This document shows positions 1 to 16,063 of a stretch of DNA of 64,000 bases, one piece after another. Positions within the stretch are counted from its first letter, which is position 1; each line of letters starts with the position of its first letter. The notes beneath the pieces are model-generated. The model was not told the origin of the DNA. It searched no databases and was given only the letters and a program-made list of their open reading frames with translations. Made by a program: the position numbers and the translations under genes. The stretch is from Roseateles depolymerans. GTDB lineage: Bacteria > Pseudomonadota > Gammaproteobacteria > Burkholderiales > Burkholderiaceae_C. Location: NCBI RefSeq assembly GCF_003387155.1, contig NZ_QUMT01000003.1:558001-622000 (forward strand), given 5' to 3'.

Positions 1-1847
1 GCGATGGCTATACCCAGATCTTGCTCAATGGTGCGAGGGCGCCCCGTGGCTTCAGCATAGACACTCTGTCCGTTGACGCGATCGAGCGAGTCGAAATCTC
101 ACGCACGACCAGCGCCGAGACCAGCGCGCGGGGCATTGCGGGCACCATCAACATCATCCTGAAGAGAACCTCGAACAACCGGGAAACGGCCACACTCAAA
201 AGCTCTGTGTCCGGCGGATGGGTGGACGGCCACTCGATTGACGGGTCGTACTCTTTCGCCAACGAGTCCGGCAGCATCGCGCTGCAGGCATCGGAACGCC
301 GCACCGATGTGATGCGTTCCACTCGCAGCGCGCTGGTGGACCAGTTGCCCGGTGCCGCAGCCATTCGCAGCCAGGAAGTGGCGCGCGGTCCGGCCACCAC
401 GCATGAGCAGAGTCTGGCACCCAAGGCCGAATGGCGGGACGAGCGACGCTCGGCGACGCTCGAAGGACTCTACCAACGCTCCCACCAGCAACGGCACACC
501 ACGCTGACGCGCTGGGACAGCGCTCTTCCGGACGGCGGCAGCCCGGTGAGCGGTGCCACCGACAGCCGCATCAACCGCGAAACCTGGTCAGCCTCGGCCC
601 TTTACCGCCAAGACGACTGGTTGACCGACCATGTGCTCGACGCACGGCTCACCGCGGGTTCCAGCCGCCGCCTGTCGGAGGGCACAGTCGTTGATGAGAC
701 GGCTGCCCCAGAAGACCGGGATCGCGCCGTCCGATATCCCTCTCTCGACCGCACCTTCGGTGTTCGCCTGCGAACGCAGAGCCGTGCCGACGCCCCAAGC
801 CGTCTGACCTTGGGATTGCAGTACGACCGCCTGCATCGCTCCGAGCAGCAGACGATCCTTGCGGGCACCCGCACCGATGATGACTACGGGATCGAGAACA
901 CAGACCTCGCTCTCTTTGCCAGTTGGACCCACCGGTTGGCTGGCGGTGACGAACTGCAGGCGGGATTGCGGCAAGAGCGGATCTCCTTCGCTTATGAAGA
1001 GAATCAGAGCGCCGCGATGCGCCGTCGCTTCGCCTACTGGATTCCGCAGGCGGCATGGCAACGCAAACTCGCCGAAGGTGGACCCACCATCAACCTGGCC
1101 CTGACCCGCTCGATCCGCCTGCCGGACGAAGCCGACTTTTCCAGCCGCACTTACCTGGCGGTTTTCAATGGCCCTGCCAGTCCCGACCAGCGCGGCAATC
1201 CGACGCTTCGACCAGAAACGGCGGGCGCGATTGAACTCGGACTTGCGCTACCCAAAGGCGCACCTTTCGAACTCAAGGGCTCCTTGGCGTACAAGCATCT
1301 CGACCATGTGATCGTCCAGGAGCTGCTGTATGACGAAAGCTGGGTATCGCGACCCCGCAATGCTGGCAAGGGCCGGCTGTGGACGTCCAGTGTGAGCCTG
1401 CGCCATCCCTTTCAGCAGCAGGCGTCGCCAGGTCTCAAGGGCAGCGGTTCGTTGTCACTGAGCACGAATGGCTCGTCGGTGGCATTGCCCGATGGCACCC
1501 GCTCCCGGCTGCCCAATGCAGCGCCTTACCAAATCAGCATCGGCGGGGACCTTCAAGGCGGCAATACCTGGCCATGGTCGGCCGGCCTTCAATGGACCTA
1601 TCGCGCTCCCACCCACTATCGCCTGCTGGGCGGCGCCAGCATGAGCACTGGCAGTCGCCGCACGCTCGACCTCTACGGCTCAACGCGTCTGGCCAAGACA
1701 CTGACTGCAAGGATGACACTGGCCAACGTGGCACAACGTGCACAGCAACGCAGCTATGTCTTCGATCAGGGCGGGCGCTTGGCCGAATCCACTTCCCGCA
1801 TCCGCGACGGCGCAACCGTTCGCCTGGCGCTGGAATGGTCGATGTAG
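1..1847 (+). CDS. TonB-dependent outer-membrane receptor, 5' end outside window
   Basis: The reading frame is open from the first bases and about 615 residues are visible. The first 60 visible residues are the end of a plug domain, with an LLNG motif, an 'AIERVEI' segment and an 'IAGTINI' glycine turn, all typical of TonB receptor plugs. The rest is a long barrel region rich in alternating aromatic and polar residues, with an 'RPE' strand near the middle as in siderophore receptors. The signal peptide and TonB box lie upstream of the window. The last residue is Met after Trp-Ser rather than the usual Phe. It lies on the same strand 81 bases before the phosphonate genes and shares their lower GC, so it may belong to that island, either for product uptake or as an unrelated neighbour. 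The ligand cannot be told from sequence. Confidence 0.85.
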   Translation, partial: DGYTQILLNGARAPRGFSIDTLSVDAIERVEISRTTSAETSARGIAGTINIILKRTSNNRETATLKSSVSGGWVDGHSIDGSYSFANESGSIALQASERRTDVMRSTRSALVDQLPGAAAIRSQEVARGPATTHEQSLAPKAEWRDERRSATLEGLYQRSHQQRHTTLTRWDSALPDGGSPVSGATDSRINRETWSASALYRQDDWLTDHVLDARLTAGSSRRLSEGTVVDETAAPEDRDRAVRYPSLDRTFGVRLRTQSRADAPSRLTLGLQYDRLHRSEQQTILAGTRTDDDYGIENTDLALFASWTHRLAGGDELQAGLRQERISFAYEENQSAAMRRRFAYWIPQAAWQRKLAEGGPTINLALTRSIRLPDEADFSSRTYLAVFNGPASPDQRGNPTLRPETAGAIELGLALPKGAPFELKGSLAYKHLDHVIVQELLYDESWVSRPRNAGKGRLWTSSVSLRHPFQQQASPGLKGSGSLSLSTNGSSVALPDGTRSRLPNAAPYQISIGGDLQGGNTWPWSAGLQWTYRAPTHYRLLGGASMSTGSRRTLDLYGSTRLAKTLTARMTLANVAQRAQQRSYVFDQGGRLAESTSRIRDGATVRLALEWSM

Positions 1848-1928: not shown

Positions 1929-2843
1929 ATGAACCACCGCTGGATCCGCACCCCTGATTGGAGTCAACTGACACACGACCCGCAGAAGCACCGCCATTAC
2001 CCCTCGGAGTTCGAATTCAGGCTGCTTTGGGAAGACCTCGAGCAAACATTCGGCATCAATGCCGAGTCCAGTCTGTTGGATTACACCGTGCTGGTGCTCA
2101 AGCCCGAATGTTTTCGGCGGAAGGTCTCCAAGCAAGTGCTTGACTACATTGTCGAAAACGGCTTCACCCTGGTCGATCTGGACATTCGGCACATCACGCC
2201 GGCTGAGGAAAACTACATTTGGCGTTATCAGTGGAACACCGCGACGGTGGACCGCTTGCGACTGCTGACGATCAAGAACCACGGCGAAGCCAGCGCCATC
2301 CTGCTCCTGAGGCGGCCAGCGTCGGCACACGCTGGGGTGCCGGCGAGCGTCCATCTGGCGTCCATCAAAGGATCTTCGGCTTACCTGGAACGACGACAGG
2401 CCACCGACATCCGCACGATTCTGGAGATCCCGAATCGTGCGCTCACTTTCATCCACTGCCCGGATGAGCCAGCCGACCTTCTTCGCGAAGCCATCACCCT
2501 GTTCCCAAAAACCGACCGCCTGATCGATCGACTTCGCGAGGGCGTCGATGCAACTGGGCACATATTCGACCGTGTCATGAGCCATGAACTCAGCATTGCT
2601 CCGCACGGTGTCAGGTTTTCCGAAGTTGCGGAGCGTCGAGGACTCTCAACCCACACCGCCGACAAGCGGCCCCTCGACGACATCCGCTCTGCGTTCGGTC
2701 CCATTGACCAGGAGACCGATCGCTGGGACTTCGTCACGTATGCGGCCGAGCTCATCCGGCACGACCGCTTGGACGAAGGTCCCGCCATCTCCACCCGCTT
2801 CTTGCCTCAGATCCTGGCAAGTTGGTCAAGCGAACCGCGCTGA
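1929..2843 (+). CDS. Nucleoside-diphosphate-kinase-like protein of the phosphonate operon
   Basis: This is a 304-residue protein. Residues about 50-193 follow the NDP kinase fold: 'YTVLVLKPE' (Lys58, matching the phosphate-binding Lys), 'AEENYIWRY' (Tyr96), 'TDIRTIL' (Arg162) and 'FIHCPDEP', where His176 aligns with the phosphorylated His of the family's N-x-x-H-G-S-D-S motif. Only His and the acidic/Pro pattern of that motif survive, so ordinary housekeeping NDP kinase activity is doubtful. An N-terminal extension of about 48 residues and a C-terminal domain of about 110 residues are not recognised; classical NDP kinases have about 140 residues in total. It lies 27 bases before the PEP mutase gene, so co-transcription is likely. 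Possible roles are phosphoryl or nucleotidyl transfer to a phosphonate intermediate, or nucleotide binding without catalysis. The fold assignment is by eye. Confidence 0.6.
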   Translation: MNHRWIRTPDWSQLTHDPQKHRHYPSEFEFRLLWEDLEQTFGINAESSLLDYTVLVLKPECFRRKVSKQVLDYIVENGFTLVDLDIRHITPAEENYIWRYQWNTATVDRLRLLTIKNHGEASAILLLRRPASAHAGVPASVHLASIKGSSAYLERRQATDIRTILEIPNRALTFIHCPDEPADLLREAITLFPKTDRLIDRLREGVDATGHIFDRVMSHELSIAPHGVRFSEVAERRGLSTHTADKRPLDDIRSAFGPIDQETDRWDFVTYAAELIRHDRLDEGPAISTRFLPQILASWSSEPR

Positions 2844-2870
2844 GACGCGGCATCAAAAGGGAGTTTGAAA

Positions 2871-3722
2871 ATGACAGAACGATTGAATCTGAGCATCTCG
2901 AGCTTTGACGTTGCCATGGAGATGCACAACCCGCTGTCGGCCATCGTGGCCCAGGAAGCAGGTTTCCCGGCACTCTGGGCCTCGGGGCTCACATTCGCCA
3001 GTGCGATGGGCTGCCGGGACCGCAATGAGGTGTCGTGGACACAGTCGCTGCACAACCTGATCGACGTCGTGCAAGTGGCGCGTCGGCCCATCTTGTTCGA
3101 CTGTGACTCAGGCCATGGGGACTTCAACAACTTCCGGCATGTGGTGCGACGCATCGAACAGATTGGGGTCTCGGGCGTCGTGCTTGAAGACAAACTGTTC
3201 CCGAAGTCCAACTCATTCGTCGAGGGCGACCAGACCCTGGTGAGTGTGCGTGAGCAAGTGGGCAAGCTGCGCGCAGGGCTCGACGCGCGCAAGAGCGAGC
3301 ATTTTTTGATCGTCGCCCGTAACGAGACGATGATTTCTGGCGGCACGGTGGCGGAATCGCTGGACCGCTGCCATGCCTATGTGGAGGCCGGCGCCGACGC
3401 CGTATTCATCCACTCGAAGCGCCGCGATCCGGAGCAGATCTTCGATTTCCTCAGTCAGTGGAAGCGCCGGGCTCCGGTCGTGATTGCGCCCACCACCTAC
3501 GACGACGTGCATTTCGACGAGTTCGCCCATGCCGGTGTCAATCTGGTGCTGTGCGCCAACCACAGTCTGCGCGCCTCGGTGCGCGCCATGGAGCAGGTTT
3601 GCCAGCAGATTCTGCAGACGCGCCGGCTGAGTGCTGTGCGCGAAATGGTCTGCTCGATGGACGGCCTCTTTTCGATGCTCGACTACCAGAAGCTGGCGCA
3701 GGACGAACTCCATTACGGCTGA
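2871..3722 (+). CDS. pepM: Phosphoenolpyruvate phosphomutase (C-P bond formation)
   Basis: This 283-residue enzyme of the isocitrate lyase/PEP mutase superfamily rearranges PEP to phosphonopyruvate, the entry step of nearly all known phosphonate biosynthesis. The mutase signature EDK-x5-NS is exact ('EDKLFPKSNS', residues 106-115), which separates true mutases from phosphonopyruvate hydrolases and lyases. Other active-site elements are 'WASGL' (36-40), the Mg-binding 'DCDSGHG' (77-83), 'IVARNE' and 'ANHSLRASV'. The length matches characterised mutases (about 290). The ATG at 2871 was chosen because AAAGGGAG lies seven bases before it; an in-frame TTG two codons upstream overlaps that spacer. 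The mutase equilibrium favours PEP strongly, so a driving enzyme is needed. No decarboxylase is present, and the aminotransferase two genes downstream is the likely partner. Confidence 0.95.
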   Translation: MTERLNLSISSFDVAMEMHNPLSAIVAQEAGFPALWASGLTFASAMGCRDRNEVSWTQSLHNLIDVVQVARRPILFDCDSGHGDFNNFRHVVRRIEQIGVSGVVLEDKLFPKSNSFVEGDQTLVSVREQVGKLRAGLDARKSEHFLIVARNETMISGGTVAESLDRCHAYVEAGADAVFIHSKRRDPEQIFDFLSQWKRRAPVVIAPTTYDDVHFDEFAHAGVNLVLCANHSLRASVRAMEQVCQQILQTRRLSAVREMVCSMDGLFSMLDYQKLAQDELHYG

Positions 3723-3768
3723 ATACGTCTGTATGCCACCAACCTACATCAGCACAAGAGGATGAGCC

Positions 3769-4599
3769 ATGAGTGAACCCGCAGCGACTTTCTTCGAGTA
3801 TGTGAGCAAGGCCTTGAGTGAGGTCCCAGATCAGCGCCTTACGGCGGCGCTGATCTCAGGCTTTGAGAACAATCTCGACTCCCTCCGCAACTATGCCGAA
3901 ACCTACCAGCACATCACCTCGTCGAAATGGTCGGCAGATTCTCTAAGCACCTTCTTCTGCGGATGGCGCAGTCCGGACGGCGCTGCACATGCGGTGTCCA
4001 GCATCGCCGTACGACTCCTTCAGGAAGCGGCGCTCCTGCCTCGCGATGAGGACAAGCTCAAGCTGATGCAGGCGGCACGCCATTGCGGCGAAATCATTGT
4101 TGAAGACATCGGACTGGGCGAGCTGCATGGTCATCCCCACCATTCGAAGCTCTATCACCGCCTCGCTTCGGCCGTCTGCGGATCTGATGCGTGGCGGCTT
4201 CAGGACCGATTCCTGAACCCGATCACCAAGGAGTTCTCGACCTGGGTGGGCCAGAAGAGACCGTTGGCCCCGCAACTGATTGAAGCCATCGAGATGATGA
4301 TCATGACCGAGCTGTTCAACACCGGCGAATACAACATGATGACGCCGATGTGGAAGGCGTGGCTGCGTAAGCACTACGGCTACTCAGCCAGCGAGGTCAA
4401 TCATGTGGCCTCTTTCCTGAGCGTCCATTGCGGCAGCGTCGAGGCGCGACATTTCACTCACGCAACCGAAGTCCTGGCACTCTATGCCGACGCGACCGGT
4501 GAGGCCATCGATTATGGGCGCATCGCTGGCCTGTCGGCCGAGTATGTCGACCGCGCCTGCACCCATGCGCGCAAGATGGCTTCAGTGCTGACACATTGA
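3769..4599 (+). CDS. Haem-oxygenase-like putative metal-dependent oxidase (HDO/TenA fold)
   Basis: This 276-residue, nearly all-helical protein resembles the iron-containing redox enzymes of the haem-oxygenase-like fold. The first ligand helix shows 'VEDIGLGELHGHPHHSKLY' (111-129), matching the family pattern E-x-G-x-G ... H-x-x-L-F/Y, with Glu112 and His125 as candidate ligands. A second helix carries Glu181 and Glu187. The third reads H220-x4-E225-x2-H228-x2-H231, which does not fit the usual H-x3-D/E-x2-H exactly, so the ligand set is uncertain. Relatives (UndA, BesC, SznF, CADD) cleave C-C bonds, decarboxylate or N-oxygenate amino acids using O2. In this operon an amino-phosphonate substrate is plausible but inferred. 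It starts 46 bases after pepM with a GAGGATG ribosome site, and its stop is nine bases before the aminotransferase ATG. Confidence 0.65.
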   Translation: MSEPAATFFEYVSKALSEVPDQRLTAALISGFENNLDSLRNYAETYQHITSSKWSADSLSTFFCGWRSPDGAAHAVSSIAVRLLQEAALLPRDEDKLKLMQAARHCGEIIVEDIGLGELHGHPHHSKLYHRLASAVCGSDAWRLQDRFLNPITKEFSTWVGQKRPLAPQLIEAIEMMIMTELFNTGEYNMMTPMWKAWLRKHYGYSASEVNHVASFLSVHCGSVEARHFTHATEVLALYADATGEAIDYGRIAGLSAEYVDRACTHARKMASVLTH

Positions 4600-4607
4600 G
4601 TGCGTTC

Positions 4608-5816
4608 ATGATCGAATTTTCCAATGCACTTGCTGAGCGCATGCGGCTCGTCACCGCACCGGGCACGTCGAGCATGCGCTCCAAGGCCAATGCGCTGCGG
4701 GCCCAGGGCATCGAGGTGGTGAACTTCGCGGCTGGGGAGCTGTTTTTTGACGCCAGTGAGGGCATGCGGCGTCATGCGGTGGCCGCCGTCAATGGGCGCC
4801 GCAATCGCTATACCCCGCCACTGGGCATGCCCGAGCTTCGCGAGCGACTTGCCGAACATCTGAGCCTACGTCTGGGGGTCCGCTATGCGCCAGACGAGGT
4901 GGCGGTCACCTGCGGCGCCAAACAGGCGCTCTTCAATACGGCCCTGATCCTGCTCAATCCGGGCGACGAGGTGCTGATTCCGGCGCCCTACTGGGAGACC
5001 TTTCCAACGCAGATCCAGCTGGCTGGCGGGGTACCGGTGATCGTTGATACGACGCGCAGTGGCTTCCGCCCTCGGGTGGAAGACCTGCACGCCGCTTTGA
5101 CGGACCGCACTCGAATGATTGTGCTCAACACGCCGAATAATCCGACCGGCGTTGTTTATGACGAATCGCTGTTGCGCGACATTGGAGAATTCGCTCGCAG
5201 GCACGGGCTTTGGATCGTGTTCGACGAGTGTTATGGAGAGCTCGTACGGGAGGGGCACGTGCATCACAACGTGGTCTCCCTCTGTCCGGAACTCAAGGCG
5301 CAGACCATCGTGGTCAATTCGTTCTCGAAGAGCCACGCAGTGACCGGATGGCGCGTCGGCTATGCGGCCGGTCCGCGGCAAGTCATCGGGGCCATGCACA
5401 ATCTGCAGGGACACACGACGTCTAATCCTTCCACGCTCTCCCAATATGCGGCACATGGGGTGATGGAGGACGGCGATCCGAGCTTTCTTCACACGGTGAA
5501 CACTTTCCTGGAAGACCAGGCTCGAATTGCACGAGAGATTGTCGGCGAAGTCCGCAGCATTTCCGTCGCACCTGCCGAAGGCGCTTTTTATCTTTATCTG
5601 CGGGTGGCCAGTCGGCTCGGCGGTCGGTATGGCGGACGCCCTATCGAGACGATCGATGCGCTCGCGGAATTGCTTCTGGGAGAAGCCCATAGCGCCGTGG
5701 TGCCGGGCAGCGCCTTCGGTGATCCCTGCGGCCTGCGCATTTCTTACGCCGTTGAGACGAGCGCATTGACGCAGGGGCTTCTGAAGATTCGTGACGTTTT
5801 GAACGCGATCGACTGA
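4608..5816 (+). CDS. PLP-dependent class I/II aminotransferase, probable phosphonopyruvate transaminase
   Basis: This 402-residue fold-type I aminotransferase of the aspartate aminotransferase subgroup shows 'TPPLGMPELR' (69-78), 'APYWETF' (126-132), 'NTPNNPTG' (174-181), 'FDECYGE' (Asp206) and 'NSFSKSHAVTGWRVGY', with Lys241 as the PLP Schiff-base lysine. A C-terminal 'GLRISYA' Arg matches the substrate alpha-carboxylate Arg. In the PEP mutase operon the simplest role is to convert phosphonopyruvate to phosphonoalanine, which would also pull the unfavourable mutase reaction forward. The substrate is inferred from context only. The start is uncertain: ATG at 4608 is used here, but an in-frame TTG at 4596 overlaps the preceding stop in a TTGA arrangement, and neither has a strong ribosome site. 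Confidence 0.85.
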   Translation: MIEFSNALAERMRLVTAPGTSSMRSKANALRAQGIEVVNFAAGELFFDASEGMRRHAVAAVNGRRNRYTPPLGMPELRERLAEHLSLRLGVRYAPDEVAVTCGAKQALFNTALILLNPGDEVLIPAPYWETFPTQIQLAGGVPVIVDTTRSGFRPRVEDLHAALTDRTRMIVLNTPNNPTGVVYDESLLRDIGEFARRHGLWIVFDECYGELVREGHVHHNVVSLCPELKAQTIVVNSFSKSHAVTGWRVGYAAGPRQVIGAMHNLQGHTTSNPSTLSQYAAHGVMEDGDPSFLHTVNTFLEDQARIAREIVGEVRSISVAPAEGAFYLYLRVASRLGGRYGGRPIETIDALAELLLGEAHSAVVPGSAFGDPCGLRISYAVETSALTQGLLKIRDVLNAID

Positions 5817-5848
5817 TACTCCCGACCTGATTCTAATGACCCGGAGCC

Positions 5849-7255
5849 ATGACCATGACTGATGTACGCACGGAAACCGATTCGTTCGGCCCCATCAACG
5901 TCCCAAGCGACCGTTACTGGGGTGCACAGACCCAGCGTTCACTGACCAACTTCGAGATCGGCGCTGACCGTTTCCGCTGGAAATTCCCTGTGATCCGCTC
6001 CCTGGCGATCCTGAAAAAGGCCGCCGCGCAGGCGAATGCCGAGCTTGGTCAGCTGCCGAGCGAACTTGCCGAGGCCATCGTCAAAGCCGCGGACGAGGTG
6101 ATCGCCGGAACGTGGACCGATCACTTTCCGCTGGTCGTGTTCCAGACGGGCTCGGGCACACAGTCCAATATGAATGCCAACGAAGTGATCGCCAATCGGG
6201 CGAGCGAGCTCCTCGGCGGCGTTCTGGGAAGCAAACGACCGGTTCATCCGAATGACCATGTCAACTGCGGCCAAAGCTCCAACGACACCTTCCCGACTGC
6301 GATGCACATCGCCGTGGTCGCGCAACTGGAGGACCAGTTGCTGCCCAAGGTCCTGCAGCTGCGCGACACGCTCCACCAGAAAGCGCAATCTTTTGAGACG
6401 ATTGTGAAGACCGGGCGGACCCATCTGCAGGACGCCACGCCCATCACGCTCGGCCAGGAGATCGGCGCGTGGGTCGCGCAGCTTGATTACGCGCTCAGCA
6501 CCGTGCGCGCCAGCATGCCAGCGCTTTTCGATCTGGCGATCGGCGGCACAGCCGTGGGCACAGGGCTCAACGCTCATCCGCAGTTCGGTGACTTGTGCGC
6601 CAAATACATCGCGGCACAAACCAAGCATCCGTTCCGCTCGGCCGCCAACAAGTTCTTCGCGTTGTCGGCCCATGACGCGCTGGTCACGACGTCGGCAAGC
6701 CTGCGGACGCTGGCTGGCGCACTGCTCAAAATCGCCAACGACGTGCGCTGGCTCGCCAGCGGGCCGCGCTGCGGCATTGGAGAAATCCGGATTCCGGAGA
6801 ACGAGCCGGGCTCGTCCATCATGCCGGGCAAGGTGAATCCGACACAGTGCGAAGCCCTGTCAATGGTGTGCGTGCAGGTATTCGGCAATGACGCCGCAAC
6901 CGCCTTCGCTGGCAGCCAGGGCAACTTCCAGCTCAATGTCTACAAGCCGGTCATGGTGCATAACGTGCTAGAGAGCATCGACCTGATTGGTGACGCCTGT
7001 GTGTCCTTTGACCTGCACTGCGCCCGTGGCATTGAACCGGACCTTGCAGTGATTGAGCGCAATCTCGAAAAGAACCTGATGCTGGTCACCGCGCTGAATC
7101 GGCACATCGGCTACGACCATGCTGCGAAGATTGCCAAGACGGCGCACCAGCAGGGTAAGACCCTGCGTGAGACGGCGATTGAGTTGGGGCTGACGACCGC
7201 GGAAGAGTTTGACCGCTGGGTGGTGCCGGCACAGATGACGTACCCGACCGCCTGA
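5849..7255 (+). CDS. fumC: Class II fumarase, last gene of the phosphonate operon
   Basis: This 468-residue protein matches E. coli FumC along its full length. It shows '[10 protein letters not shown]' (100-109), the B-site 'HPND' (133-136), 'QSSND' (142-146), 'GRTHLQDA' with His192, and the superfamily signature '[11 protein letters not shown]' with catalytic Ser322. It should interconvert fumarate and malate. It starts 32 bases after the aminotransferase with CCGGAG before the ATG. Its presence in a phosphonate operon is unusual. It may act on a phosphonate analogue of fumarate or malate, serve as a nitro- or amino-eliminating lyase like other superfamily members, supply oxaloacetate-derived donors, or be an ordinary fumarase carried along. 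All the usual catalytic residues are kept, which favours genuine fumarase chemistry. The DNA directly after its stop is a truncated gene, marking the island edge. Confidence 0.9.
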
Positions 7256-7416
7256 CGCGAAAGGCGCAAGGCCCCCGCGGCCAACGCAGCCAAGGCAGCC
7301 ACTGGCGCCATAGCGGCGGCGACATACCCTGCGCTGCTCGGCCCCCACGCCGCAATAGCCAGACCGCCCACCACCGCCCCCAATCCAATGCCCGCGTTCG
7401 CAGCCGACACGGTCAA
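7256..7416 (-). pseudogene. Remnant of an MFS transporter C-terminus
   Basis: Read from 7416 downward, about 54 codons encode 'SAANAGIGLGAVVGG' followed by a hydrophobic helix ending 'AAGALRLSR'. This is the typical last pair of transmembrane helices of a DHA1-type major facilitator protein. The frame then runs without a stop into the antisense of fumC, so the natural end of the gene has been lost. The upstream part is also missing and abuts a LysR fragment at 7418. It is a double-truncated remnant, not a functional gene. Confidence 0.6.
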
Positions 7417-7417
7417 G

Positions 7418-7531
7418 GTCCCTCACACGGAGGGACTGCCGCTGCATTTGATCTGGCAAAGGAGCCGCCAATGGCTGCCCAAGGTGGACGGCTTGCTTGC
7501 GCATCTCGGTCGAACGCTTCAGATGCTCTGA
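7418..7531 (+). pseudogene. Remnant of a LysR regulator C-terminus
   Basis: Thirty-seven codons ending in TGA encode 'GLPLHLIWQRSRQWLPKV' and then 'DGLLAHLGRTLQ'. This matches the last strand and helix of the effector domain of LysR-type regulators, where 'L.W...R..P.VRAF.DFL' is typical. No upstream portion exists: the preceding DNA belongs to the MFS remnant on the other strand. The LysR N-terminal piece at 7796 lies downstream, so the two are not simply halves of one interrupted gene in order. Confidence 0.5.
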
Positions 7532-7710
7532 AGAATGCGCCGCCCCCGCTCCACCTGCCGGAAGGTCTCATCGTCTTTCCAGGCAACGTCCAGGAAAACC
7601 CGGGTGGATTCCAGGAAGTTTCCGTCCACGTCAAACGTTCGGCTCACGCCGTGCCATTGCCCCATGAAGGCGTCGAATGGGCGTTCCTGATTTGATTGCA
7701 TTGCTTGCAT
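7519..7710 (-). pseudogene. Truncated small lipocalin-like protein (DUF3598-type start)
   Basis: The 63-codon frame begins with an ATG at 7710 and contains 'FDAFMGQWHGVSRTFD' followed by 'GNFLESTR'. This resembles the opening strands of lipocalin-like proteins such as DUF3598 or DUF1579, which are normally two to three times longer. After 'FRQVE' the frame runs into the LysR C-terminal remnant and stops, so the 3' part seems to have been lost. A TAGAC-TT-GTCTA palindrome lies 31 bases upstream. The family call is tentative. Confidence 0.4.
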
Positions 7711-7795: not shown

Positions 7796-8077
7796 ATGGA
7801 TTTACAACAACTCCGTACCTTCACTGTGATCGCCCGGGAGGGCAGTCTTGCCCGGGCATCGGCCCAACTCTTCCTCAGCCAGCCGGCCATCAGTGCCCAG
7901 TTGAAGGCCCTGGAATCGGAACTGGGCGTCAAACTCTTCGACCGAACGTCCAAAGGCATGACCCTGACCTTCGCCGGTCGCGATCTGCTGCAGGAAGCCA
8001 GCAATAACCTGGCCGCGGCAACAAACATCCTGGCGCTACGACGCAACCTAACAACTGGAAGAAGGGCATGGCGTTGA
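7796..8077 (+). pseudogene. LysR regulator truncated after the DNA-binding domain
   Basis: The frame gives 93 codons. Residues 1-80 are a standard LysR winged helix: 'MDLQQLRTFTVIAREGS', 'SQPAISAQLKALE' and 'LFDRTSKGMTLT'. The effector-binding domain (about 200 residues) is absent. From about 8038 the DNA instead encodes, in another frame, the middle of a BPSL0067-type protein, so the LysR sequence ends at a recombination junction and the last residues are read-through. A lone HTH could still bind DNA, but decay is more likely. Confidence 0.75.
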
Positions 8078-8352
8078 CGCCCGCCGTGGTGATCGCGCTC
8101 TCCGCAGGAACGCCCATCGCGAGCGGCTGGAACGCCGCGGGGTACTACCCCAACAATTCGACAGGCCAGCACGCAGGAATCTTCTCCGGTGCATTGGTGG
8201 AGAATGGGCAAGCAATCGGCTTCAAGATCATCGAGCAGTACAACGGCATCGACAAGATCAGCGAACGCACCGTTTACTTCGACCCGGTCGCACACGGCAA
8301 GCGCGACACCTATTTCTATAACGGCGAGAACTACGCCACCATCCAATGGTGA
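8038..8352 (+). pseudogene. C-terminal part of a BPSL0067-type amidase effector
   Basis: The frame reads 'TTQPNNWKKGMALTP' and then 'GTPIASGW' and 'GQHAGIFSG', ending 'TYFYNGENYATIQW'. The W-x-K-G ... G-T-x-I-A ... G-x-H-A-G/A-I order is that of BPSL0067/Tae4-like NlpC/P60-type amidases, many of which are type VI secretion effectors. The N-terminal segment with the catalytic Cys is missing; the retained His in 'QHAGIF' would be the catalytic His. The join to the LysR remnant is near 8038. An internal ATG at 8068 could give a 94-residue fragment. The stop overlaps the next gene by seven bases, a typical effector/immunity arrangement. Confidence 0.5.
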
Positions 8353-8822
8353 ATCCATCCGCACAGTCACTTCGCCGATACCTCACGGCACTCCTGGGCG
8401 TCATGGCTCTTTCTGCGCCTGTTCTCTCAACAGCCGCACCTGAACCCTTCTCGTGTCCGGTGCTGTTGGGGCAGACCGATCAGAAGGCCCTCGCAGAACA
8501 CCCAGGTTGGCAAGCCGTCGTCATTCAGCCGGAAGTCACCAAGCACGAACTCAACAGCTTCCAGATCAATTGGGGGCCGGTGGAGAAGCCAGACGGCGCC
8601 ATCTACGACGAACAGGTGGAAAAGCCCGATGGCCGCAAAGGCAGCAGCCTGACACTCGGCTGGGATGTGCATGAGATCCAACAGGGCTATGCGATTTGTG
8701 GCTATGCATTCACCAATGTCCGGCTGGTGCGGCCATTGAAGGGTTACTCCCGCTGCACCGCGGTCAGCCGTCGCCCCTCCAAAGACGCCGCCTATCGGTT
8801 CGAGTCGGCCGGCTGCCGCTGA
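8346..8822 (+). CDS. Small exported protein, possible STY0300-type immunity partner
   Basis: This is a 158-residue protein with a Sec signal peptide (basic start, hydrophobic residues about 12-28, cleavage near 'STAAPEP'). The mature part has four Cys ('FSCPVLL', 'AICGYAF', 'YSRCTAV', 'ESAGCR'), suggesting two disulfides and a periplasmic location. The size, the leading 'CP' and the position after a BPSL0067-type gene fit the STY0300-like proteins found beside periplasm-targeted amidase effectors. The family call is from memory of such neighbourhoods and is moderate. The gene itself appears intact although its partner is truncated, which would make it an orphan immunity gene. Confidence 0.5.
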   Translation: MVNPSAQSLRRYLTALLGVMALSAPVLSTAAPEPFSCPVLLGQTDQKALAEHPGWQAVVIQPEVTKHELNSFQINWGPVEKPDGAIYDEQVEKPDGRKGSSLTLGWDVHEIQQGYAICGYAFTNVRLVRPLKGYSRCTAVSRRPSKDAAYRFESAGCR

Positions 8823-12393: not shown

Positions 12394-14268
<1,875 letters not shown>

Positions 14269-14281
14269 GGAGAAGCTCCTG

Positions 14282-14358
14282 GAATATTGCGAATGGCGGA
14301 ATCGTAGGAGCGCCGTTCAGCAAGAGGCTTTCAATTTCAAAGGCGAAACGCAATATTC
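14282..14358. promoter_or_regulatory. Inverted repeat GAATATTGCG...CGCAATATTC between glmS and the AsnC-type gene
   Basis: Two exact 10-base reverse-complement copies lie at 14282-14291 and 14349-14358, 57 bases apart, in an AT-rich divergent promoter region. Lrp/AsnC proteins bind AT-rich paired sites as octamers, so the neighbouring regulator is the obvious candidate ligand. Assignment is by position only. Confidence 0.45.
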
Positions 14359-14406
14359 AATCACCGCCAACAGTTAAGGAACTTTTCTTTCATAATTTGC
14401 GTCAAG

Positions 14407-14910
14407 ATGGAATCTTCAATCAATCTGGATGCTGTCGACCTGCGCCTATTGGACCTGCTGCAGGCCGATGCCTCGCTCTCCAACCAAGCCCTGGCCGAGC
14501 GCGCGCACGTCTCCCCCGCCACCTGCCTGCGCCGCGTGCGGCGGTTGGTGGAAAGCGGGGTGATTGAAAAGCAGGTGGCCCTCTTGTCTCCCGACAAGCT
14601 AGGCAGCGGGCTCAGCGCCCTGGTGGAGATCACGCTGGACCGGCAAGGCGCCGAGCATCTGGACGCCTTCGAGGCCCTGGCCGTGGCCGCCCCGGAAGTC
14701 CAGCAATGCTGGCGGGTGGCGCCAGGCCCGGACTTCATCCTGGTGATGCAGGTGCCGGACATGCCGGCCTACCACGCACTGGTGCAGCGCCTGTTCACCC
14801 AGCAGGCCAACGTGCGCAACGTGAAGGCCTTTTTCTCGGTGAAGCGGGCCAAGTTCGACCCGCGCGTGGCGCTGCCCGGCCTCAGCGCTTCAGGATCAGC
14901 AGCCCCTTGA
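14407..14910 (+). CDS. Lrp/AsnC-family transcriptional regulator
   Basis: This is a 167-residue regulator. The N-terminal winged helix reads 'LDAVDLRLLDLLQADASLSN', then 'ERAHVSPATCLRRVRRL'. The C-terminal RAM domain shows 'ISVLVEITLD' and 'GPDFILVMQVPDM' features. It is divergent from glmS and shares a region with a 10-base inverted repeat. Its 3' end overlaps the convergent rlmI gene by 29 bases. An amino acid is the usual effector of the family, but which one cannot be told here. Confidence 0.92.
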   Translation: MESSINLDAVDLRLLDLLQADASLSNQALAERAHVSPATCLRRVRRLVESGVIEKQVALLSPDKLGSGLSALVEITLDRQGAEHLDAFEALAVAAPEVQQCWRVAPGPDFILVMQVPDMPAYHALVQRLFTQQANVRNVKAFFSVKRAKFDPRVALPGLSASGSAAP

Positions 14911-16063
14911 GGTACTCGCCCTCGGGGAAGTAGATGGTCTGCGGATGGTCCGGGGATGCGCCCACCCGGTCCATGATGAACCCGTCCACGCCCGCATCCA
15001 TGCCAGCGCCCGCCACGATCTTGTGGAAGAGCTCGGGGCCCACGCCGCCGGAGCAGGAGAAGGTGAACAGCAGGCCGCCCGGCTTGAGCAGCTTCAGGCC
15101 CAGGCGATTGATGTCCTTGTAGGCCCGTGCCGCCCGCTCAGCATGCGCCGCCGTCGGCGCGAACTTGGGCGGGTCCAGGATGATGGCGTCGAAGCTGCGG
15201 CCCTGCTTGAGCATGTCGCGCAGCGTCTGGTTGACGTCAGCATCCAGCGCCGTATGACGGGCGGGGTCGAAGCCGTTGAGCTCGACGTGCGCCGTCGCGC
15301 GGGCCAGCGCCGGTGCGGAGGAGTCCACGCTCACCACCTCCGTCGCGCCCCCTGCCAGTGCAGCCACCGAGAAACCACCGGTGTAGCTGTAGCAGTTCAG
15401 CACGCTCTGGCAGCCGTAGTGCCGCACCAGGTCGGCGAACTTCTTGCGGTTGTCGCGCTGGTCGAGGTAATAGCCGGTCTTGTGGCCCTCGGCCACGTCC
15501 AGGCTCAGCTTCCATTCGTGTTCGGAGATCACCACGGCGGTGTCTCCGTCGCCGCGCAGCCAGCCGGTGACCGGCTCCAGGCCTTCGAGCGTGCGCACGC
15601 CCGAATCCGAACGCTCATACAAACGGGACAGGCCGGTGGCCGCGAGCAGCAGGTCGGCAATGACGCCCTTCCACTTCTCGGTGCCGGCAGACAGGAACTG
15701 GGCGCACAGGGTGCTGCCGTAGCGGTCCACGATCAAGCCGGGCAGGCCATCGGCCTCGCCATGGATCAGCCGCACGGCATCCGAGGCGATCGGCATGCGG
15801 GCCCGCAGGGCGATCGCCGCCTGGATCTTGCGCTGGAAGAAGGCTTCGTCGATGCGTTCATGCTCATCGAAGCTCCAGGCGCGCACCCGGATCATGGAGG
15901 TGGGACTGAAGGAGGCCCAGCACAGGAATTTGCCTTCGGCCGATTCCACACGCACGGTTTCACCAGGGTCGGCCTTGCCTTTGTCGATCGAGCCCTGGAA
16001 GACCCACGGATGGCGGCGCAGCAGCGAGCGGTCCTTGCCCTCGCGGAGACGAATCACTTTCAT
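14882..16063 (-). CDS. rlmI: 23S rRNA m5C methyltransferase, RlmI type
   Basis: This 393-residue protein starts at the ATG at 16063 ('MKVIRLREGKDRSLL'). An N-terminal PUA domain (about 1-75, 'RRHPWVFQGSI') precedes an RlmI-like middle domain and a Rossmann methyltransferase with 'LNCYSYTGGFSVAAL' (SAM motif I), 'VDSSAPAL' and the catalytic/binding 'LDPPKFAP'. The family methylates cytosine 1962 of 23S rRNA. The frame stays open upstream past 16063 but that part has no domain character. Its 3' end overlaps the AsnC-type gene by 29 bases. Confidence 0.92.
   Translation of the reverse strand: MKVIRLREGKDRSLLRRHPWVFQGSIDKGKADPGETVRVESAEGKFLCWASFSPTSMIRVRAWSFDEHERIDEAFFQRKIQAAIALRARMPIASDAVRLIHGEADGLPGLIVDRYGSTLCAQFLSAGTEKWKGVIADLLLAATGLSRLYERSDSGVRTLEGLEPVTGWLRGDGDTAVVISEHEWKLSLDVAEGHKTGYYLDQRDNRKKFADLVRHYGCQSVLNCYSYTGGFSVAALAGGATEVVSVDSSAPALARATAHVELNGFDPARHTALDADVNQTLRDMLKQGRSFDAIILDPPKFAPTAAHAERAARAYKDINRLGLKLLKPGGLLFTFSCSGGVGPELFHKIVAGAGMDAGVDGFIMDRVGASPDHPQTIYFPEGEYLKGLLILKR

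What the first reader, a model, noticed from the sequence alone, without database searches (positions are those of the whole stretch)
1929..7255. Phosphonate biosynthesis operon with an unfamiliar enzyme set
A PEP mutase with exact EDK-x5-NS motif lies in a five-gene run with an NDP-kinase-like protein, a haem-oxygenase-like enzyme, an aminotransferase and a fumarase. I know of no characterised phosphonate pathway with this set. Expected first steps are PEP to phosphonopyruvate to phosphonoalanine; the later steps would be new.
Basis: partly seen in the sequence, partly recalled or inferred. Interest (0 to 1): 0.92.

Follow-up and report, generated by a model that had tools for sequence, protein, structure and literature searches.

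The report
Phosphonate gene cluster with spare fumarase
The bacterium carries a rare, probably imported set of at least nine genes that should make a carbon-phosphorus compound by way of phosphonoalanine, and the extra fumarase gene in it suggests, but does not prove, that the product attacks fumarase, a central metabolic enzyme.

Summary
The five-gene run is real. The PEP mutase keeps its motif. The aminotransferase groups with ones beside PEP mutase in rhizobia, so PEP to phosphonopyruvate to phosphonoalanine is well supported. The NDP-kinase-like protein has an NDK fold plus extensions. The 'haem-oxygenase-like' ORF hits no library; only seven conserved ligand-type residues support it.

Upstream, the same strand continues with an MFS exporter, a nucleotidyltransferase, a Pfam-confirmed haem-oxygenase-fold oxidase and a TonB receptor: nine genes. 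MFS, nucleotidyltransferase and oxidase stand in the same order, near an NDK-like gene, on an Enterobacter plasmid, with no PEP mutase in the 16.6 kb searched. I found the whole set nowhere else in what I sampled.

The fumarase is an intact extra copy without a close counterpart in 15 congeners; the genome also has a FumC-like gene of unsure function and a class I fumarase. By analogy with flavophos, where a spare lumazine synthase protects the producer, I read it as a spare target: an oxidised phosphonoalanine derivative that inhibits fumarase. Product, oxidase chemistry and target are inferred. Rivals: biosynthetic fumarase, metabolic support, metallophore. New variant of a known kind.

The parts
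1..1847 (+). TonB-dependent receptor, 3' part (717 aa in all; begins at contig C3:557694, before the window)
   Evidence: Plug PF07715 49.4 bits on the upstream part, OMP_b-brl_3 PF14905 39.4 bits on the window part; open over 717 aa; overlaps the upstream oxidase gene by 4 bases and ends 81 bases before the NDK-like gene; no PDB relative at E 1e-3
1929..2843 (+). NDK-fold phosphotransferase-like protein, 304 aa, with about 110 aa behind the NDK domain
   Evidence: AlphaFold2 with 34 sequences, pLDDT 91.7, pTM 0.91; Foldseek best 4ane_A, TM 0.84 over the target; H176, D179, K147, R186 in 34 of 34 aligned sequences, K58 in 32 of 34
2865..3722 (+). PEP mutase (PepM), 285 aa; TTG start, or ATG at 2871
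   Evidence: PF13714 191 bits; aligns to solved PEP mutase 1m1b with E 2.2e-67, EDKLFPKSNS in place
3769..4599 (+). ORF3, 276 aa, putative haem-oxygenase-fold dimetal oxidase
   Evidence: no library hit; E112/D113, H125, E181, E187, H220, E225, H228 type residues kept in 7 of 8 aligned sequences, the window's own included, five of them changed together in the eighth
4596..5816 (+). class I aminotransferase, 406 aa, predicted phosphonopyruvate transaminase; overlaps ORF3 by 4 bases
   Evidence: PF00155 215 bits; groups with 7 PepM-adjacent rhizobial aminotransferases, support 95/99, in a tree of 22 rows
5849..7255 (+). class II fumarase (FumC), 468 aa, extra copy; predicted spare target
   Evidence: TIGR00979 728.7 bits, above cut-off; conserved blocks unchanged against solved fumarases, read by eye; a FumC-like gene and a class I fumarase elsewhere in the genome; best match 46-49% in 15 of 15 congeners
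7290..7423 (-). remnant of the 3' end of the MFS gene that also stands left of the cluster; likely edge of the inserted segment
   Evidence: 134 bp, 87% to L032:9179-9312
7427..7533 (+). remnant of the 3' end of the LysR gene that also stands left of the cluster; likely edge of the inserted segment
   Evidence: 107 bp, 88% to L032:11250-11356

Best explanation
A probably horizontally acquired nine-gene cluster (MFS, nucleotidyltransferase, oxidase, TonB receptor, NDK-like, PepM, ORF3, aminotransferase, FumC) makes an oxidised phosphonoalanine-derived antimetabolite. Steps: PepM turns PEP into phosphonopyruvate; the aminotransferase traps it as phosphonoalanine, an aspartate analogue (both well supported by homology). 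One or two haem-oxygenase-fold iron oxidases (the 481-aa upstream protein and perhaps ORF3) desaturate or N-oxygenate phosphonoalanine or a conjugate of it (inferred). The nucleotidyltransferase and the NDK-fold protein activate or cap the phosphonate by nucleotidyl and phosphoryl transfer (inferred; for the first there is a proposal in argolaphos). MFS exports; the TonB receptor takes the product or its metal complex back (inferred). FumC is a spare, working target enzyme that protects the producer; hence the product should inhibit fumarase, whose four-carbon dicarboxylate substrates resemble phosphonoalanine as aspartate does (inferred).
For: PepM. Aminotransferase: of 25 plasmid rows listed (891 records in all) I opened 7, and in 7 of 7 the gene directly follows a pepM gene; three of the 7 (H51, H58, H69) were chosen when one search had already shown PepM beside them. 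Tree support 95/99 for the window protein plus these 7. A dedicated phosphonopyruvate transaminase as PepM partner is shown experimentally for PnaA (PMC11867202). Larger cluster. Upstream oxidase: PF14518 30.2 bits over cut-off 28.9; a profile of it and four related oxidases matches MboA, E 8.6e-18. MFS, nucleotidyltransferase and oxidase in the same order on an Enterobacter plasmid, 29, 30 and 32% identical, with an NDK-like gene (35% over 200 aa) close by. FumC: intact by eye, extra, 32 bases behind the aminotransferase. Precedent for the logic: flavophos, a Burkholderia phosphonate cluster with a spare lumazine synthase that confers resistance (PMC12871164).
Against: No product, no substrate and no resistance test. 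ORF3's fold is not established. The set is found in one genome only, so the link of FumC to the pathway rests on one case; it could be a passenger. The other FumC-like gene of the genome is below the fumarase cut-off (528.8 of 664.75) and also close to an aspartase-named model (497.4 of 510), so its function is unsure. The top-ranked PepM hit in the plasmid collection (44.4%) is beside a phosphonopyruvate decarboxylase; the 40 PepM rows listed of 370 all lie at 41-46%, so PepM itself does not choose the branch. Two aminotransferases of that decarboxylase locus fall elsewhere in the tree. No redox partner like MboB was recognised among the nine genes. In flavophos even unrelated and nearly inactive lumazine synthases gave resistance, so a protective FumC need not show up in its sequence, and its intactness proves little.
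Confidence: 0.45

Rival explanations
1. FumC is a pathway enzyme: it adds water or ammonia across, or eliminates from, a phosphonic analogue of fumarate, malate or aspartate, for example 3-phosphonoacrylate from phosphonoalanine.
For: It is the last gene of the run, 32 bases behind the aminotransferase; the superfamily has been turned to biosynthesis, e.g. nitrosuccinate lyase CreD (named in the abstract of PMC13411527, seen only in the listing).
Against: It scores as a true class II fumarase, 728.7 against cut-off 664.75, and only 45.5 bits on the nitrosuccinate lyase model; the conserved blocks are unchanged against solved fumarases (by eye). A new substrate usually leaves marks there.
Confidence: 0.2
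2. FumC is metabolic support: the transaminase uses aspartate and releases oxaloacetate, and extra fumarase helps to pull oxaloacetate back through malate and fumarate, driving an unfavourable PepM reaction.
For: PnaA depends strictly on aspartate and is reversible, with co-substrate supply setting the yield (PMC11867202 section 7).
Against: The genome already has a class I fumarase and a FumC-like gene; no malate dehydrogenase or aspartase gene is among the nine genes.
Confidence: 0.13
3. The product is a phosphonate metallophore: made by iron oxidases of a kind that also make metal-binding groups, exported by MFS, and taken up again through its own TonB receptor.
For: MFS exporter and a complete TonB receptor inside the same run; chalkophore production is listed among the roles of this oxidase superfamily (PMC13108848 section 4).
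Against: The receptor reaches no NCBIfam cut-off and phmmer found no solved relative; an extra fumarase has no obvious place in it, although the two readings could both hold.
Confidence: 0.15
4. A phosphonate for the cell envelope (phosphonolipid or polymer), as the rhizobial PepM-aminotransferase loci may make.
For: The closest aminotransferases come from loci with a cytidylyltransferase and, in several, a CDP-alcohol phosphatidyltransferase.
Against: No such phosphatidyltransferase is among the nine genes; oxidase, exporter and TonB receptor point to a small secreted molecule.
Confidence: 0.05
5. Chance neighbours: only PepM and the aminotransferase form a pathway; ORF3, NDK-like and FumC are unrelated passengers.
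For: No second genome with the whole set in the samples.
Against: Gaps of -4 to 81 bases over nine genes; four of the genes have homologues together in another cluster.
Confidence: 0.07

Closest known systems
Argolaphos cluster (alp), Streptomyces monomycini, PMC8976061 (Table 1 passage and section 8 read)
   Same: PepM AlpH, a 291-aa NDK-like protein AlpE, nucleotidyltransferase AlpM, MFS AlpN, aminotransferase AlpL in one cluster
   Different: It goes through phosphonopyruvate decarboxylase to aminomethylphosphonate, with an HEPD-like oxygenase and peptide ligases; no haem-oxygenase-fold oxidase, fumarase or TonB receptor in the table.
Phosphonoalamide pathway (pnaABCD), PMC11867202 (abstract passages and section 7 read)
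   Same: PepM coupled to a transaminase giving phosphonoalanine
   Different: There phosphonoalanine is joined to dipeptides by ATP-grasp ligases; none is among the nine genes here (an ATP-grasp gene stands further left, outside the repeated edge)
Flavophos cluster (bsf), Burkholderia, PMC12871164 (abstract, opening, sections 4 and 9, passages read)
   Same: A phosphonate cluster that carries a spare copy of a housekeeping enzyme, the target
   Different: Route through 2-phosphonomethylmalate; target is lumazine synthase, not fumarase
Mangotoxin MboA, PMC13185094 (passages read)
   Same: A profile of the upstream 481-aa oxidase and four relatives matches it, E 8.6e-18
   Different: MboA acts on a Leu-Ala-Arg peptide with redox partner MboB; neither peptide ligases nor a recognisable partner stand in this run
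Enterobacter chuandaensis plasmid NZ_CP097174 cluster
   Same: MFS, nucleotidyltransferase and oxidase in the same order, NDK-like and an aminotransferase nearby
   Different: No match to PepM, ORF3, FumC or TonB of this cluster in 16.6 kb; instead an enolase-like gene, a dehydrogenase of 2-hydroxyacid type (by eye), U32 and M14 family genes

Membership tests
PEP mutase (PepM) | PEP mutase/ICL-superfamily domain with EDK-x5-NS | tested here: met
   TIGR02320 307.7 bits is slightly under its cut-off 319.55 and far above the phosphonopyruvate hydrolase model, 179.4
PEP mutase (PepM) | catalyses PEP to phosphonopyruvate | not testable with these tools
   needs enzyme assay
Phosphonoalanine branch (PnaA-type transaminase) | PepM-linked AAT-superfamily transaminase | tested here: met
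   second gene after PepM; groups with 7 PepM-linked enzymes, 95/99; PnaA itself was not in the tree
Phosphonoalanine branch (PnaA-type transaminase) | no phosphonopyruvate decarboxylase in the cluster | tested here: met
   none among the nine genes
Haem-oxygenase-like dimetal oxidases, upstream 481-aa protein | fold-family profile match | tested here: met
   PF14518 30.2 bits over 28.9; family profile to MboA E 8.6e-18
Haem-oxygenase-like dimetal oxidases, ORF3 | fold-family profile match | tested here: not met
   and for three relatives; so it is not filed as a member
Haem-oxygenase-like dimetal oxidases, ORF3 | three His and three or four carboxylate ligands | tested here: inconclusive
   a fitting set of seven positions is conserved in 7 of 8 sequences, but without a structure they are not shown to meet
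Nucleoside diphosphate kinase | NDK fold | tested here: met
Nucleoside diphosphate kinase | curated family score and catalytic His | tested here: inconclusive
   PF00334 20.4 bits under cut-off 27; one invariant His (H176) fits the active-site place by sequence order, and the Asn usually three before it (recalled) is Thr here and varies in the family
Self-resistance by target duplication (flavophos type) | extra, apparently intact copy of a housekeeping enzyme in the cluster | tested here: met
Self-resistance by target duplication (flavophos type) | copy confers resistance to the product | not testable with these tools
   product unknown
Argolaphos-type cluster | decarboxylase route to aminomethylphosphonate | tested here: not met
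   no decarboxylase or HEPD-like gene among the nine

The most novel reading that the evidence does not exclude
The product would be, as far as I know, the first natural phosphonate aimed at fumarase: phosphonoalanine oxidised at nitrogen or desaturated by diiron oxidases into a mimic of the carbanion or olefin of the fumarase reaction (a phosphono-nitronate or phosphonoacrylate type), with the cluster's FumC as spare target, and with a haem-oxygenase-fold oxidase at work in a phosphonate pathway.
Probability: 0.18. Interest if true: 0.85.

Novelty: new variant of a known kind. Interest (0 to 1): 0.6.

Why it matters
It points to an unexplored branch after phosphonoalanine, to oxidases of the haem-oxygenase fold in phosphonate chemistry (0 papers in the library hold 'phosphonate biosynthesis', 'PepM' and 'heme oxygenase-like' together; 0 hold 'fumarase', 'phosphonate', 'self-resistance' and 'biosynthetic gene cluster'; the library is open-licence PMC only), and, through the extra fumarase, to a named target that can be tested once product is in hand. 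It also describes an MFS-nucleotidyltransferase-oxidase module with an NDK-fold protein that is shared by two otherwise different clusters.

Tried and rejected
ORF3 relatives by pattern in genome contigs (29 stretches, no relative) and viral contigs (80 stretches, none), and in phage records (none). Folding ORF3 alone: pLDDT 41.6, not used for a fold search. Profile comparison of ORF3 with the other oxidases, small alignments: not significant. NDK-like gene as a phosphonate marker: rejected, PepM near 0 of 78 loci. FumC as the genus's own copy: rejected, the genus-type FumC-like gene is elsewhere. ATP-grasp gene L032:7590-8831 as part of the cluster: set aside, it lies beyond the repeated edge and has a 65% homologue in congener G127, whose best PepM match is 39%. 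Promoter and terminator scan: no more sites than in shuffles. A link of ORF3 to phosphonates through its relatives: none of 7 near PepM; one stands beside what read by eye as NRPS genes, others beside MFS or TauE genes and LysR- or GntR-type regulators (LysR by eye).
Full report
What is there. The window is contig C3:558001-622000 of a 5.66 Mb genome whose name the tools do not give. I read the contig upstream: on the same strand come an MFS exporter (L032:11871-13061; PF07690 45.8 bits), a nucleotidyltransferase (13058-14197; PF14907 21.7 bits, under cut-off 31.2; its Enterobacter homologue 45.6, over), an iron oxidase of the haem-oxygenase fold (14252-15697, 481 aa from a TTG start that may be too early; PF14518 30.2 bits, over cut-off) and a TonB receptor that ends at window 1847. 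Gaps over the nine genes run -4, 54, -4, 81, 21, 46, -4, 32 bases. That they are one transcript is inferred.

Where it came from. Right of FumC lie 134 bp and 107 bp that repeat, at 87 and 88%, the 3' ends of the MFS and LysR genes left of the cluster. In congener G529 an MFS-LysR pair stands without the cluster; in most other congeners the pair was not matched as a whole. Of 16 genomes of the genus, only the own one has a close PepM; 10 others have matches of 29-32%, and one of these, G127, also one of 39%. GC per kb is 0.58-0.65 over the segment and 0.61-0.67 in the flanks I measured, against 0.668 for the whole window: only a weak contrast. It looks like an acquired segment between two copies of one locus; how it came in is not shown.

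PepM. The protein aligns over its length to solved PEP mutase 1m1b, E 2.2e-67, with the EDK loop in place; the acid residues I know as catalytic (recalled) are kept, read by eye. Phosphonopyruvate hydrolase, isocitrate lyase and methylisocitrate lyase models score far lower.

Aminotransferase. Of 891 plasmid records with a match, 25 were listed; I opened 7 of them, 3 in the knowledge that PepM was there, and in 7 of 7 the aminotransferase directly follows a pepM gene. In a tree of 22 sequences, including 7 own-genome paralogues, the window protein joins these 7 with support 95/99; two aminotransferases from the Azospirillum thermophilum PepM locus, which also has a decarboxylase, do not. With PnaA as experimental precedent (PMC11867202), phosphonoalanine is the likely first stable product.

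NDK-like protein. Its Pfam score is below cut-off, but a model built with 34 sequences is confident (pLDDT 91.7). Of the 50 PDB chains listed by Foldseek, 46 are NDK or NM23 entries and 4 are axonemal assemblies (best: TM 0.84 by target length, E 9.2e-6). H176, D179, K147 and R186 are in 34 of 34 and K58 in 32 of 34. A scan of one genome per species gave 78 loci (a capped list); PepM is near none of the 78 (flanks up to 10 kb, several shorter). So it is a gene family of wider use. The argolaphos table lists one (AlpE) beside PepM; I could not compare its sequence.

Module shared with other clusters. MFS, nucleotidyltransferase and oxidase occur in the same order on a plasmid of Enterobacter chuandaensis (29, 30 and 32% identical), with an NDK-like gene (35% over 200 aa) separated from the MFS by two genes; no PepM match in 16.6 kb and none annotated in 46 kb, in a gene table that is incomplete by the tool's own account. 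A Lysobacteraceae MAG (L079) has NDK-like, PF14518 oxidase and PF14907 genes, and Bradyrhizobium YR681 (L072) has an Enterobacter-type set without matches to these MFS, nucleotidyltransferase and 481-aa oxidase genes. The nucleotidyltransferase found 1 of 72,556 plasmid records and the oxidase 4; the oxidase is in 2 of 399 genomes of the order, one of them the own, the other at 23%.

ORF3. It hits nothing in Pfam, NCBIfam or PDB sequences. Relatives are rare: 1 of 150 family genomes (own), 3 of 369 class genomes (own included), 5 of 398 phylum genomes with the profile (own included; the samples overlap), and 2 of 72,556 plasmids. I looked at 7 relatives in 6 loci; none has PepM near. Two relatives, in L006 and L147, were not examined for neighbours. 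In 8 aligned sequences, the window's own included, a set of seven positions (E112/D113, H125, E181, E187, H220, E225, H228) is kept in 7; in the eighth, a tandem paralogue, five of them are changed together. That joint loss argues for one metal site. The set resembles the three-His, four-carboxylate type described in PMC13108848 (abstract and sections 4 and 9 read), but hhalign, on 4 and 5 sequences, did not connect ORF3 to the other oxidases, so ORF3 is not filed as a member.

FumC. It passes the fumarase equivalog cut-off, and the blocks that I know as its active site (recalled) match solved fumarases, read by eye. The genome has another FumC-like gene, below that cut-off and of unsure function, and a class I fumarase. 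In 15 of 15 congeners the best match to the cluster FumC is 46-49%, while 5 of 12 genomes from other families of the order reach 59-61%. It is therefore an extra, probably foreign and probably active fumarase. In flavophos a spare lumazine synthase, not needed for production, confers resistance, and so do unrelated and nearly inactive ones (PMC12871164 section 9); I transfer that logic by analogy. That phosphonoalanine resembles aspartate and so the dicarboxylates handled by fumarase is chemistry from general knowledge.

How it most likely works. Supported by homology: PEP to phosphonopyruvate to phosphonoalanine. Inferred: oxidation by one or two iron oxidases; the nearest solved relative of the upstream one's family desaturates an amino-acid side chain in a peptide (MboA). 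Inferred: nucleotidyl and phosphoryl transfer by the two other enzymes; cytidylyl activation is proposed, not shown, for AlpM in argolaphos. Inferred: export, uptake, fumarase as target. I put phosphonopyruvate at about 0.93, phosphonoalanine at 0.85, oxidation of a phosphonoalanine derivative at 0.55 and fumarase as target at 0.4; these are judgements.

Is it new. PepM clusters, transaminase coupling and spare targets are known kinds. None of my paper searches listed a work that I recognised as describing this combination; I opened 7 papers in part and did not read the rest of the listings. The whole set was not found in the genomes sampled. New variant of a known kind.

Noticed in passing
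L029:1329-2597 (-), L069:12169-13458, and by clustering L059, L063, L072, L079: Enolase or enolase-like genes stand near NDK-like genes in several clusters (Pfam run for L029 and L069 only); the L069 one scores high on both enolase domains. They may be further spare targets or pathway enzymes.
   Followed up: partly
L151:8354-9163: A tandem paralogue of an ORF3 relative in which five of seven ligand-type positions are changed together, like a dead or regulatory partner of its neighbour at L151:9867-10739.
   Followed up: partly
L032:6115-8831: MFS-like ORF (by eye) overlapping an ATP-grasp-like gene, left of the repeated edge; a 65% homologue of the latter is in congener G127. Looks like a separate small peptide or conjugate system.
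   Followed up: partly
window 7796-8822: A 93-aa LysR-like N-terminal ORF followed by two short ORFs, read by eye as a broken regulator near the right edge.
   Followed up: no
L037 (Azospirillum thermophilum plasmid): A PEP mutase match and a phosphonopyruvate decarboxylase directly behind contractile injection system genes.
   Followed up: no
L152:6783-9729 and L153:7173-10070: ORF3 relatives between a LysR-like regulator (by eye) and a TauE-type exporter (Pfam for L152, by eye for L153) in two genomes, a small self-contained system of unknown product.
   Followed up: no
L027:9992-12343 (Streptomyces anulatus plasmid): NDK-like domain at the start of a 783-aa protein annotated as amidohydrolase, in a region with YcaO and TOMM leader-binding genes.
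   Followed up: no
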